NCBI RefSeq assembly: GCF_000708205.1
Contig: NW_014575556.1
Location: 124,599-188,598, forward strand
Length of the DNA stretch: 64,000 nucleotides
Direction of reading: 5' to 3'
DNA from: Mixia osmundae IAM 14324
Lineage: Eukaryota > Basidiomycota > Mixiomycetes > Mixiales > Mixiaceae
Shown here: positions 13,413 through 41,643 of the stretch, piece by piece
Numbering within the stretch: position 1 is the stretch's first letter
Layout of the letters: every line of letters begins with the position of its first letter
Position numbers and translations under genes: made by a program
The notes under the pieces: generated by a model
The model's database searches: none
Told to the model about the DNA's origin: nothing
The model's input: the letters and a program-made list of their open reading frames with translations, nothing else

Positions 13413-14676
13413 ATGTTATATCTCGCGCTCTTGCTCTATCCTGCCCTCGTCATTGCCCACCTACCTCATCACCGCCGCCAAGTCACGGATGATATCTCTG
13501 CAAACTTCTACCGAGTCGAGAGTCAGTAGCTGTTGGGTCGTCTGGCCGCGCTGACACCCCCTCAGTCGAAGCCTCAGCCTCGTGTGATCATGTCGGGGAG
13601 AGTGTCATCAGCTATTCATCATTCGAGATGCTCACGCTGCGAACGACTTTGGGCGAATTCGATATCAAACCGCTGAACCAAGTTCGCTCCTATAAGATCA
13701 CCGCGCAAACGGCCTCGCAGCCTCCAGCTTGGTCACCAACAACAGTAGAGGTCTCGTTCACCGCTCACAGCGATGCCGATCAGCAAGAGCTATGGTCCGA
13801 TGAAGCCAGAACATGCTGCAAATTCGAAGCCACAGGGAGCGGTATCTTCGGACTGATCGACCCCTCCTTTGAACGAACCAGTAGTGACCCACAACTGTAT
13901 GTAACGTGCGGTGGATCAGAAACGCCACGAGGATGCTCCAGACAGCCAATCGTTCACCAATGCCGATACGGTCAGATGGTCGTGCGCCCTGTCGATGTCG
14001 ATGACGCAGGTTTTCCAAAGGTCCAGGCATACAGGCTGCAAGCTCATGCAAGCGGACAATGCACCTTTTCTGATTCGCAGACCCGCTTTGCTATCAGCGG
14101 CATCAGCACGGTTGGGCCCGTCGACGCTCAGGTCGTCACCGTCGCCAAACCGCGACAGACAGGCAGAATATTCGCACGCGTGGCTATCGTGCGTCTCGAT
14201 CAGTCTCAGAACCTCATGACTGAAAAGTTCCCAGTTTCCTGGCCGCCGACTGCGTATAGGAGTCATCTCTTCCTTCATCCTATACGAGCGCCAAAGCATC
14301 AAGATCAAGCTTCAAATCCAGTGAGTGCCCATGATCAGCTTTAAAGCACATGCCGAGTAAGTCTTCAGCGATGTCGGACAAGAACAAGAAGATTGGCAGA
14401 CTACGGAGAAGCAATGCTGTCATCCTGTACTGTCGACTACACTCGTGCTCGGCTTTTGGACACCATCGGCCCGCAGCTTTGCTCACGAACCACCGCGGCA
14501 GATGTTTGTCGCTTGTCCACCCAGTCTGTCACTCGCGGAAAAACGAGGCATATGCTGATGGTGACGCAGGTTCGCTCGCCATTGAGGTGCCGGGTTGTCA
14601 AAGACACTACGACGGCAAGGGTGAGTTCGCATGCACGGACGTGAACCAGCTTGTGGATGTCGTTCCCGTCGATTGA
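13413..14676 (+). CDS. Secreted protein P1, unrecognised three-member family
   Basis: Five exons (13413-13521, 13566-14188, 14235-14320, 14369-14523, 14570-14676) give 359 residues. The signal peptide is MLYLALLLYPALVIA. The mature part has an RTCC pair, VTCGG, a KVQAYRLQAHASGQC segment, then QCCHPVL, FVACPPS and a C-terminal FACTDVNQLVDVV. Each segment aligns with P2 and P3 at 38.7-41.6 kb, and all four introns fall at equivalent positions with identical phases (1, 0, 2, 1). The exon boundaries rest on that three-way comparison. No known domain is recognised; a disulfide-rich extracellular protein is inferred. P1 is the most diverged member. Confidence 0.7.
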
Positions 14677-14834
14677 GACATCGTAGATCGCGGTACATTG
14701 CAGCCTGTGCCTCGTACATGTATGTCTTGATCTCTTCTCATAATAGGCAAATTCAGGGGCGAGTATGCGAATAAATCTCAATCGTCCTCGCATCTGCACA
14801 TGCATTGCTTGCTAACACACCCACATTGTGTAGC

Positions 14835-15313
14835 TTAGGCAGCAATCGTGACCTCGACCTCGACACCGACCTGAGGAGTATCAAATTAGCCAAAGCTAAA
14901 CTTGCTTTAACAGACGAAGCCTACCTCGATCGACATGGACGTGATCTGCTTGACAGTCTCGGCAGGCGACGTGAGGTCGATGAGGCGCTTGTGAATGCGC
15001 ATCTCACTAGACAGCCGCTCGTCGTCAGCCGCGATCACTAGAGGGATCGAAAGACTGACCGAGTGTCCCAGGTAGTGGTACCTTCACCACAGGGCGATTT
15101 CATGCTCGTGATGCGAAGGATCTTTGTCGGCATTCGGACGGGTCCCTTGACCTTGAGTTGCTTGTCCTTTGCACGGTTGACAAGATCGTTGCAGACTTTC
15201 TCCAAGTTCTTCACATTGCGCGAGGTCAACGTGATTCGGATCTTGTGGGCCTTTGCCTTGGGTGCACCGGACGCCTCATCGTATTTATCACCCTTGGGAG
15301 CGACGTAAGCCAT
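14835..15313 (-). CDS. RPS20: 40S ribosomal protein S20 (uS10)
   Basis: Three exons (15060-15313, 14925-15006, 14835-14870), 123 residues. Diagnostic uS10 segments are KIRITLTSRNVKNLE, GPVRMPTKILRI, SPCGEGTTTWD and, after the first intron, MRIHKRLIDL. The last intron (54 nt) leaves a 12-codon final exon ending VEVEVTIAA, matching the usual C terminus. The protein is part of the 40S head. It is convergent with P1 (158 bp) and divergent from the permease gene. Confidence 0.95.
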
Positions 15314-38695: not shown

Positions 38696-40056
38696 CTACT
38701 GTACAGACGACAGCGTCATGAGCTCGAGTCGTCGCTTGACATCCTTGCAAGTGAACTTGACATCGGGATCGTATTGAAGTTTGCATCTGCTTTCTCGGCC
38801 CGAGTACACGAGCTTGCCTGCTCGCAATCAGCAGGAAGGCTGTAGCAAAACGATCATGCTTACTTGGTAGGCACGCGACGCACATCGGCCCACATCCAGC
38901 CGGGCTACCGAGCAATATATTCACATGGCGTCTGTAAGCGCCAACGATGATGGAAGCGAACGAGATTGCGTTGCAGCATGGTTGTTCCTCTGGTACCCAG
39001 TTGTTCTGCAACATGCCATACTCCCTGCAGGGATGGTCAGAGTACGGCTTGATATATATCTCAGCGAAGCTTACTTGAGCGTGGCTGTGAATCGTATGGT
39101 CACAAGCTCAGTGCCAGGGTATCTGACCTCTTTGATATTAGCAAAGAAGCGGCCGCCATCAAACTAGCGAGTGCTGTCAGTCTTTGGGTACCATTGCGTG
39201 GAGCCGGCCTACACTGATCAGCTCAGCAGTGCTCGTGGGTGCGGGGAGCGCGATCGTGACGATGGTGCTGATCAATGGGCCCATTGTGGTGCTCATCCAT
39301 GTGGCTCCTTCGCGGCGCCAGCCAGCTAGTTGACATTGGCCTGCAGCTTGATAATAGAACTGATAGACTTGAATTTTTGGCACCTCTAATGCAGGGATTG
39401 TCACGTCCGCAATGCTGTGAAAGGCCGGTGAGCATTGGACTTCTCGTTCTCTGGTCAATTGGCGAGCGCAGCCTGTGGGAATGCTCGCAGCTGCGCCACC
39501 ACACTCGACCCAGGCAGAGACTGTGCTGAGAGGGCTGACGTATCCTGAAGTCAGGCCAAGCGTGACATTGAAAGCTGCTTGAGCTCGGCAGCATCTTTTC
39601 CATGTTGGATCTGCGGTATTCCACATGGCTTGTTCGGCTGCGCTAGTGGTCACGAAGAAGCCGTAATAGCCCGTGCCTTCCTTTCTGTCGATAGCGTCTG
39701 CATTGGGCCAGTAAGTGAATCCATGGGCATTACGAGCGCCAAAGTTTTTCGTTCGCACTGCAGCACCGTTGCGCGTGAACATGACCACGTTGATATCGCC
39801 GTCGATTGTAGTGAGCCCAGGACCGACATCTTCATCGACAACAGGAATGCCGGGACGGCTGCATTTGAAGTTGGCTGAGGCTGCAAGCCTCATGACAGGT
39901 CAGCATAAGGTTTCGCCGATATCGAGTGTTGCTATGCGCTGAACCTCTTAGCTTGTATTGGATCGTCCTGACATCCCCTTCGTAATCGTTTACTAAGGCG
40001 CAGTGTATATAACTGTCGAGGATGAGTAGAAGAGAGAAGATTGTGGACAGAATCAT
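38696..40056 (-). CDS. Secreted protein P2, unrecognised three-member family
   Basis: Five exons (39945-40056, 39213-39880, 39075-39163, 38864-39024, 38696-38817), 383 residues. The signal peptide is MILSTIFSLLLILDSYIHC, followed by DYEGDVRTIQYKLR. Landmarks shared with P3 are ANFKC, GTGYYGFF, KRCCRAQAAFNV, VECGGAAAS, YYQAAGQCQL, FDGGRFFANIKEVRYPG, EQPCCNAISF, VACLPS, RCKLQYDPDVKFTC and DVKRRLELMT. Intron phases 1, 0, 2, 1 equal those of P1 and P3. P2 and P3 lie head-to-tail 285 bp apart, so a tandem duplication is clear. No known domain is recognised; it is probably a disulfide-rich extracellular protein. Confidence 0.72.
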
Positions 40057-40341
40057 GATCGCTGTCTCGTCAATCAGGCGAAATGGCCGAAGAGCGCTTG
40101 GCTACGTGTCGTTATGGCCCCTTGCTGACAGCAGGCTCACAAGTATCGCAGGAGCCTGCGCGGACACTGTCCATGGAAGAGACACGTGCATTGCGTCGTC
40201 TCTTCTTACTTGGACTGCTGTGACGTCTTCCTTCGCGCAACCAAGCAGTTATGGGATTGAGCGATGATGCAGCATGACGCGACGACAGACCACCACAAGA
40301 TTCGCAAAGGCGTGACGCTTCTTTCACGGATTGCAATTGGT

Positions 40342-41643
40342 TCACTGAACGGACGAAGACGTCACAAGCTCGAGTCGTCGCTTGACATCTGTGCACCAGT
40401 AATTGACAAAGGGATCGTACTGCAGCTTGCATCTGCTCTCGGGATCCGCATGGACAAGAACATCTGGACTGACATGAGAAAACTCTTCGATAGCACAGGC
40501 GCTGGACCTACTCGGCCGGCACGCGACGAAAATCGGCGCAGAAAGGCTCGTCAAGAGGACGTCTGCATATCGTTGATAGGCGCCAACGATGACGGAGCCA
40601 AAGGTGATCGCATCACAGCATGGCTGCTGATCTGCTGGCCAGCTGTCCTGCATGTCCCCGTATTCTCTCCCCAAGGGACGTTAGCAGCAAGCTCATAAAG
40701 GACGGCAGACTTACTTGATCGTCACGGCAAAGCGCATCGATACAGATTGCATGCCAGGGTTCCTGACTTCTTTGAGCACGGCGAAGAAGCGCCCGGGATC
40801 AAACTGATCGATCTCAGAACATATCGAGGATGGAGGAACGCCCGCTGACACTGATAAACTCTGTACTGGTGCGCGGCGCAAGGAGTGAGATCGTCATCAG
40901 CGTGCTGATGAAGGGTCCCATCGTTGTTCTCGACATCGTTGCTTTTCCGGGTTGTAGGTTGCGTAGCTGGCATTGGCCAGAGGCCTGGTAGTAGAAGCGA
41001 TAGACTTGGATCGTGGGGATATCTATGTCGTAGATCGGCATCTCTGTGATGCTATGGAAGGCGGGCGAGCAGGTCTCAATCCTGCTCATCGTAGCATTAC
41101 AATCTGCTCGGTAGCTTGCAGCTGCACCGCCACACTCGATCCAGCCGGAGATTGTGCTCCGCTTGCTGAGATAAGCCGATGTGACACCGAGAGAAACGTT
41201 GAAGGCCGCCTGAGCACGACAGCATCTCTTCCATTGTGGATCCTCAGTCTCCCACATGCCTTGCTCGAAAGCGCCATTCGTCGCATAGAAGCGAAAATAG
41301 CCCGTTCCTTCTCTCTTGTCGATAGCATCTCCGTTGGGCAGAAAGTGAAACCCTTGTGTGTTGCGATAGCCAAGTCGTTTTGTGCGCAGGTCCGCCCCGT
41401 TGCGACTCAGCATCATCTGAGTGAGATCACCATCGATCGCTGTAAGGCCTGGACCTGTGCACTTGAAGGTGGCCGTGGCTGCAAGCGGTGATGTAAGCGA
41501 GAGCTTTGGCAAAGCGGCTTCCTATGCGCTGGACCTTTGAGCTTGTAGAGTACCGTTCTCACATCCCCTTCGTGGTCGGTCACCAGAGCGCAACGGATGC
41601 TGTTGCTGAGAAGAAGCAAGAAAGAGACGACAGAGAGGTGCAT
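40342..41643 (-). CDS. Secreted protein P3, unrecognised three-member family
   Basis: Five exons (41535-41643, 40850-41478, 40715-40803, 40512-40666, 40342-40463), 367 residues. The signal peptide is MHLSVVSFLLLLSNSIRC, followed by DHEGDVRTVLYKLK. It shares with P2 the blocks ATFKC, GTGYFRFY, KRCCRAQAAFNV, IECGGAAAS, YYQASGQCQL, FDPGRFFAVLKEVRNPG, QQPCCDAITF, FVACRP, RCKLQYDPFVNYWC and DVKRRLELVT. Exons 3 and 5 have exactly the same length as in P2 (89 and 122 nt). The start chosen is the first true ATG. The gene sits directly downstream of CUS2, whose 3' region must carry its promoter. Confidence 0.72.

What the first reader, a model, noticed from the sequence alone, without database searches (positions are those of the whole stretch)
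13413..41643. Undescribed secreted family P1/P2/P3 with shared cysteine framework and identical gene architecture
Three genes (13413-14676 +, 38696-40056 -, 40342-41643 -) encode signal-peptide proteins of 359, 383 and 367 residues. They share ordered blocks: a CC pair, [TEI]CGG, a GQC segment, a second CC, VAC and a C-terminal DV motif, with RCKLQYDP in P2/P3. All have five exons, and the four introns are at equivalent positions with phases 1, 0, 2, 1. I recognise no known domain. P2 and P3 are a recent tandem pair; P1 lies 24 kb away and has diverged strongly, which suggests a rapidly evolving extracellular family (possible effectors or wall proteins).
Basis: partly seen in the sequence, partly recalled or inferred. 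Interest (0 to 1): 0.8.

Follow-up and report, generated by a model that had tools for sequence, protein, structure and literature searches.

The report
Fungal secreted two-unit cysteine protein family
Three genes of the fern-infecting fungus Mixia osmundae belong to a family of about 21 gene copies for apparently exported proteins, each built from two copies of one cysteine-rich unit that matched nothing known here; they may bind something of the host or surroundings, but their function is untested.

Summary
In detail: all three genes lie at the stated coordinates, with 359, 383 and 367 residues, five exons and phases 1,0,2,1. The window is from Mixia osmundae IAM 14324. Each mature protein is a tandem duplication of one ~160-residue six-cysteine unit (N-half versus C-half profiles: E 2e-12, score 79; best of 100 column shuffles 18). 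The family has at least 21 loci, 10 within 123 kb of this contig. Two inferences fail: P2/P3 are not a recent pair (dS about 2; P2 is closer to a copy 119 kb away), and 'rapidly evolving' is not shown (dN/dS 0.13-0.2). Pfam, NCBIfam and PDB profile searches give no family; both structure models have pLDDT about 51, so the fold is open. The only protein hits are Mixia, but that search missed members of its own queries, so lineage restriction is likely, not proven. Best reading: soluble extracellular, disulfide-stabilised, non-enzymatic binding proteins, plausibly apoplastic effectors. Function is inferred, not tested.

The parts
13413..14676 (+). P1 gene (public model E5Q_03085 lacks its N-terminus): exons 13413-13521, 13566-14188, 14235-14320, 14369-14523, 14570-14676; 359 aa; 12 Cys
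   Evidence: residues 58-359 identical to public protein P0002
13413..13493 (+). P1 signal-peptide region (hydrophobic core LALLLYPALVIA) and short linker
   Evidence: hydropathy only, no signal-peptide predictor available
13494..14014 (+). P1 unit 1 (includes intron 1): Cys 43,120,121,151,160,169
14015..14673 (+). P1 unit 2 (includes introns 2-4): Cys 202,289,290,322,334,346
   Evidence: P1 halves also self-align by BLASTP, E 1.9e-6, composition correction off
38696..40056 (-). P2 gene (public model L969DRAFT_18699 lacks exon 1): exons 39945-40056, 39213-39880, 39075-39163, 38864-39024, 38696-38817; 383 aa
   Evidence: residues 38-383 identical to public protein P0004
39381..39972 (-). P2 unit 1: Cys 44,134,135,164,175,187
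   Evidence: P2 was not a row of the profiles nor of the 28 units
38699..39380 (-). P2 unit 2: Cys 220,306,307,341,355,367 plus an extra pair 334,338
40342..41643 (-). P3 gene (public model L969DRAFT_555676 uses a different intron-3 acceptor): exons 41535-41643, 40850-41478, 40715-40803, 40512-40666, 40342-40463; 367 aa
   Evidence: introns 3 and 4 inferred from homology only
41018..41562 (-). P3 unit 1: Cys 43,122,123,152,163,173
40345..41017 (-). P3 unit 2: Cys 206,292,293,325,339,351
   Evidence: on the model; depends on the homology-based splice of introns 3 and 4

Best explanation
P1, P2 and P3 are members of one expanded Mixia osmundae family of at least 21 loci. A family member enters the secretory pathway through an N-terminal signal peptide and is released as a soluble protein made of two homologous ~160-residue, beta-rich units. 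In each unit six cysteines (C1 in the first strand, an adjacent CC pair, then C4, C5, C6) form three disulfides, with a nearly invariant tryptophan just before the CC pair packing the core. Segments between these fixed points diverge freely, so each paralogue presents a different surface on the same scaffold. The most likely role is binding rather than catalysis: recognition or masking of ligands outside the fungal cell, most plausibly as apoplastic effectors or adhesin/lectin-like proteins in contact with the fern host. Shown: gene structures, family, unit duplication, cysteine framework, clustering. Inferred: secretion (hydropathy only), disulfides (cysteine conservation), beta-rich fold (low-confidence models), binding role and host context.
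For: Gene models. Two-unit duplication: N-half versus C-half profiles of 15 members, probability 97.7, E 2.1e-12, 146 columns; score 79 against 14 reversed and at most 18 in 100 column shuffles. Framework: 26 of 28 units carry all six cysteines, 28 of 28 the CC pair, 26 of 28 the aligned W; W-x(4-9)-CC occurs exactly twice in 17 of 18 gene models. In the 15-row alignment only Cys, W, G and P are invariant, with Y, G and C nearly so: no invariant acidic, His, Ser or Lys residue, which argues against an enzyme. No C-terminal hydrophobic tail in P1-P3. Family size and clustering. Even cysteine counts after the hydrophobic N-terminus in P1 (12), P2 (14) and P3 (12) fit full pairing.
Against: No expression data in planta or in culture were seen. 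P1's public model is an E5Q_ entry; the genome paper called genes with RNA-seq-guided AUGUSTUS (PMC3376729, passages), so P1 may be expressed without host. That E5Q_ entries are that annotation is recalled. At about 360 aa the proteins exceed the size usual for small secreted effectors (recalled). dN/dS is low where measurable, not an arms-race signature. Not every member fits even pairing: C8_114 unit 1 has five cysteines, C7_608 and C15_86 unit 2 seven. A glutamine is common (22 of 28 units), so a conserved polar site is not fully excluded. Both structure models are low confidence.
Confidence: 0.45

Rival explanations
1. Extracellular structural or surface proteins of the fungus itself (non-GPI wall, sheath, spore-coat or mating/self-recognition proteins), expanded for cell-type-specific use, with no role in the host.
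For: Purifying selection between the close copies; large size; public models of P1 and C15_86 carry E5Q_ identifiers, an annotation guided by RNA-seq (link recalled); neighbours with a Pfam match in the window are ordinary cellular genes.
Against: No GPI-type C-terminus in P1-P3; no Ser/Thr-rich stretch (at most 12 of 30 residues in P1-P3); at least 21 strongly diverged loci is a lot for one structural role in a 13.5 Mb genome.
Confidence: 0.3
2. A secreted enzyme or enzyme inhibitor family with an unrecognised active site.
For: Two-domain size and secretion would fit; some inhibitors are cysteine-framed scaffolds (general knowledge).
Against: No invariant polar residue outside the framework in 15 members; no Pfam match, and no NCBIfam match (bacterial and archaeal models only). 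An inhibitor with a variable loop is not excluded.
Confidence: 0.15
3. A distant member of a known fungal effector fold (for example FOLD, ToxA-like, MAX) that sequence comparison cannot see.
For: Known effector folds can show very low identity (FOLD 15.5-22.5%, PMC10942635, passages); the models are beta-rich.
Against: The two units here are homologous to each other, unlike the two distinct domains of FOLD; no credible PDB match by profile or by model, but the models are too weak to exclude one.
Confidence: 0.15

Closest known systems
FOLD (Fol dual-domain) effectors of Fusarium oxysporum (Avr1/SIX4, Avr3/SIX1, SIX6, SIX13)
   Same: Secreted, cysteine-rich, two domains, six spaced cysteines in the N-domain, very low identity among members (PMC10942635, passages).
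   Different: FOLD proteins have two distinct domains (helix plus five strands; beta-sandwich). Here both halves are copies of one six-cysteine unit. No Kex2-type dibasic site common to P1-P3: in the first 60 residues one RR in P1, none in P2 or P3.
Lineage-specific expanded secreted cysteine-rich protein families of plant-associated fungi (small secreted protein / candidate effector class)
   Same: Signal-peptide-like N-terminus, conserved cysteines, many paralogues, clustering, no domain annotation, only Mixia hits.
   Different: About 360 aa with two units instead of a short single domain (size criterion recalled); no expression evidence; purifying selection in the close pairs.
Alternaria Alt a 1 (4aud), a beta-rich secreted fungal protein
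   Same: Appears at rank 19 of the Foldseek list for the low-confidence full-length model; its nature is recalled.
   Different: E 0.43, TM 0.08/0.18 on a pLDDT 51 model: not evidence of kinship.

Membership tests
FOLD effectors | Two distinct domains | tested here: not met
   The two halves are homologous copies: hhalign E 2.1e-12, score 79 against at most 18 in 100 shuffles
FOLD effectors | Six-cysteine N-domain with the FOLD spacing | tested here: inconclusive
   Six cysteines per unit but no FOLD sequence was aligned; the unit profile matched no FOLD entry in PDB at E<=10
FOLD effectors | FOLD three-dimensional structure | tested here: inconclusive
   Models at pLDDT 51.5 and 50.9; no credible matches
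Candidate apoplastic effector (secreted cysteine-rich, lineage-specific) | N-terminal signal peptide | tested here: met
   Hydrophobic N-terminal core in 3 of 3 (best 9-residue hydropathy 2.5-2.8); crude measure, no dedicated predictor available
Candidate apoplastic effector (secreted cysteine-rich, lineage-specific) | No membrane or GPI anchor | tested here: met
   No 19-residue stretch above 1.51 after residue 30 in P1-P3, and none of the maxima is at the C-terminus; crude measure, not run on the other loci
Candidate apoplastic effector (secreted cysteine-rich, lineage-specific) | Restricted to the lineage | tested here: inconclusive
   6 distinct proteins found, all Mixia, but the search missed a public protein of its own query (P2's P0004): positive control failed
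Candidate apoplastic effector (secreted cysteine-rich, lineage-specific) | Induced during host colonisation | not testable with these tools
   No in-planta expression data available
Candidate apoplastic effector (secreted cysteine-rich, lineage-specific) | Accelerated or positive selection | tested here: inconclusive
   Average dN/dS 0.13-0.2 (NG86) between three close paralogues, dS near or past saturation; no orthologues for a proper test
Any characterised Pfam or NCBIfam family | Match above curated cut-off | tested here: not met
   Pfam: 0 families for 3 of 3 full proteins; best chance-level E 0.064 over 15 members and 0.033 over 16 units; NCBIfam (prokaryotic models) best 0.047 over 16 units

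The most novel reading that the evidence does not exclude
The ~160-residue unit is an undescribed extracellular domain with its own fold and disulfide pattern. It was duplicated in tandem once, before the family expanded, and was then used by the isolated class Mixiomycetes as a main variable scaffold for contact with a fern host: an independent counterpart of the known effector fold families, in a lineage for which I saw no characterised effector.
Probability: 0.3. Interest if true: 0.65.

Novelty: new member of a known kind. Interest (0 to 1): 0.45.

Why it matters
Mixia osmundae is a fern pathogen (PMC4071342, passage); in the taxonomy copy its class holds one order and its genus one species (the levels between were not looked up). 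A sizeable family without sequence match, built by duplication of one cysteine unit, gives a concrete set of genes to test for host contact in a little-studied plant group, and a clean sequence definition (the six-cysteine unit) with which other Pucciniomycotina genomes can be searched. The public models of P1 and P2 lack the signal-peptide exon and that of P3 ends early, so secretome surveys relying on them would miss P1 and P2.

Tried and rejected
Considered and rejected: chance similarity (500 shuffles); a recent P2/P3 tandem duplication; GPI wall proteins; a known Pfam, NCBIfam or PDB sequence family. The two PDB hits (cytokine receptor-like factor 2, E 1.4) are chance level.

Limits: the three protein searches returned 2, 4 and 1 proteins (6 distinct, all Mixia). 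One search held P2 in its query yet did not return P2's own public protein (P0004, found), and one search returned the public protein of one of its five query members; whether public models of the other four exist is unknown. Absence from other fungi is therefore weak evidence. Genome searches are lower bounds by their own statement. Tree: 3 of 14 inner branches starred, 8 open; its C8_43 row carried a wrong intron 4 (the model, which contains public P0005 letter for letter was used for dN/dS only). The spliced aligner was seeded with P1-P3 themselves, so its recovery of P1 and P2 is not independent. Literature: five listings naming Mixia osmundae (15 of 48, 10 of 13, 15 of 20, 7 of 7 and 8 of 117 papers shown, the last needing two of three terms) show no title or start of abstract describing this family; I read only passages of PMC3376729, PMC4071342, PMC10942635 and PMC13347111. 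The main genome paper (Toome et al. 2014) is not held, so I do not claim that the family is absent from print. One further listing (rust effectors) gave nothing used here.

Rows dropped: from 18 gene models (P1-P3 plus 15), alignment A2 left out P2, C8_43 and the C11_453 fragment; 28 of 30 possible units of those 15 members were used (unit 1 of C15_86 and of C11_451 too short in the models); A6 used 16 of the 28 units; the tree used 17 of 18 models (fragment left out, public protein P0003 used for C15_86).
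Full report
Where it is. The window is G000:C8:124599-188598 of a 13.5 Mb, 19-contig genome. Public proteins identical to parts of P1, P2 and P3 are named Mixia osmundae IAM 14324, a Pucciniomycotina fungus and fern pathogen (PMC4071342, passage).

Gene models. A spliced aligner seeded with the three proteins (so not independent) returns the same P2 model and nearly the same P1 model; it put one P1 donor nine bases upstream and missed the ends. Public proteins are letter-identical over introns 2-4 of P1 and of P2 but start inside the genes and so lack the signal-peptide exon; the public P3 protein diverges after residue 276. 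P3's second unit therefore rests on homology.

The unit. P1 has exactly twelve cysteines, 43,120,121,151,160,169 and 202,289,290,322,334,346, a six-plus-six pattern. Its two halves self-align by BLASTP, E 1.9e-6 over 73 residues with composition correction off; P2 and P3 alone do not show this (best E 2.3 and 9). Profiles of the two halves from 15 members do: hhalign probability 97.7, E 2.1e-12, 146 aligned columns, score 79; reversed control 14; 100 column shuffles at most 18. Of 28 units, 23 have exactly six cysteines, 26 have all six framework positions, 28 the CC pair, 26 the aligned tryptophan. The spacing is C-x(71-91)-CC-x(27-33)-C-x(8-14)-C-x(6-13)-C (from the positions). The 17 two-unit models all have the W-x(4-9)-CC motif twice, so the duplication came before the family expanded. 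By rough position and phase the main introns do not fall at matching places in the two units; this was not tested formally.

The family. Eight searches of the whole genome, with seven family proteins or pieces and with P1 unit 2, and spliced models give 21 loci: C8 at 43, 72, 78, 80, 101, 102, 114, 138 (P1), 163 (P2) and 165 kb (P3); C7 at 605, 607, 608 kb; C11 at 451, 453, 462 kb; C14 at 155 and 156 kb; C2 at 53 kb, C4 at 767 kb and C15 at 86 kb. Seventeen have two-unit models; C11 453 kb, C8 78 kb and the two on C14 are partial and rest on weaker scores (C11 453 kb E 0.0015; C8 78 kb E 4.4e-7; C14 against members elsewhere E 2.5e-6 and 7.8e-7 and 8.7e-6). C8 78 kb has a stop inside its match and only one Cys at the first CC pair and may be decayed. 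Ten of 21 lie in 122,778 bases of C8, 0.9% of the genome. Of the 15 models outside P1-P3, introns at the equivalent of P1 positions 243-246 (phase 0), 273 (phase 2) and 325 (phase 1) occur in 10, 10 and 12, and 10 have a further intron near 75 that P1-P3 lack; intron 1 at position 37 is in 5, with 7 having one near 45-46 instead or in addition. The shared architecture is thus an old family trait with exceptions (C7_608 keeps none of the three later introns at these positions), not a mark of recent kinship.

Evolution. P2 versus P3: 59% identity, dN 0.285, dS 2.1. P2 versus C8_43: 66%, dN 0.234, dS 1.2 (NG86). P2, P3 and C8_43 group at 100/100 with order unresolved; P1 groups with C8_114 at 89/89. 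So P2/P3 are old neighbours under purifying selection, and deep divergence of the others reflects age, rate or both.

What it is not, so far. No Pfam family for P1-P3 at E<=10; only chance-level single matches for 15 members and 16 units; PDB profile searches gave nothing or E 1.4. The three protein-database searches found six proteins, all Mixia, but missed a public protein of their own query, so restriction to Mixia is likely rather than shown. Structure models are low confidence and their fold searches uninformative.

Mechanism. A hydrophobic N-terminus and no C-terminal hydrophobic tail, even cysteine counts in P1-P3, and invariance limited to cysteine, tryptophan, glycine and proline point to a soluble, secreted, disulfide-held scaffold that binds something, with variable surfaces. 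P2's additional cysteines 334 and 338 are absent from P1, P3 and C8_43 and come as a pair, as expected for an added disulfide; a few other units have odd counts, which does not fit so neatly. Host interaction is an economical reason for so many diverged copies in the small genome of a plant parasite, but nothing here tests it; surface or developmental roles are the main rival. Of 21 open frames of 250 aa or more listed in the window, 18 were scanned; 12 have a Pfam match, all of ordinary kinds: NmrA-like, Nipped-B-like, SLAC1 channel, amino-acid permease, kinesin (two frames), ABC transporter (four frames), RRM protein, dynamitin; 6 have none.

Comparison with known kinds. The nearest described architecture that I know of is the FOLD class of Fusarium effectors, secreted dual-domain proteins with six cysteines in the N-domain and 15.5-22.5% identity among members (PMC10942635, passages). 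They have two distinct domains, whereas here both are copies of one unit, so membership is not claimed. The family fits the broad known kind of lineage-specific, expanded, cysteine-rich secreted proteins; as a domain it had no match in the libraries searched.

Noticed in passing
window 13413-13521 and 39945-40056: The public models of P1 (E5Q_03085) and P2 (L969DRAFT_18699) lack the first exon, hence the signal peptide; secretome surveys based on them would miss both.
   Followed up: yes
window 40667-40714 (P3 intron 3): An acceptor that keeps the conserved frame is a G-A-G site; the public protein diverges here and ends early. P3 may be alternatively spliced, mis-annotated or truncated.
   Followed up: partly
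L052 (C8:78.4-79.4 kb, + strand): A further, more diverged copy with a stop inside one match and only one Cys at the first CC pair; possibly decaying.
   Followed up: partly
L053 (C14:154.6-155.5 kb + and 156.0-156.9 kb -): A convergent pair of strongly diverged members; their full gene models were not worked out.
   Followed up: partly
window 33310-37877 (-): ABC-transporter-type (PDR/CDR) domains in four exon-sized open frames lie next to P2.
   Followed up: no
window 4217-6334 (-), 11609-12574 (-), 19169-20680 (-), 30985-32076 (-), 44106-45365 (+), 60705-62102 (-): Six of 18 scanned open frames have no Pfam match at E<=0.001.
   Followed up: no
window 28001-30000: Strong AT skew (0.27) coinciding with the kinesin open frame.
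   Followed up: no
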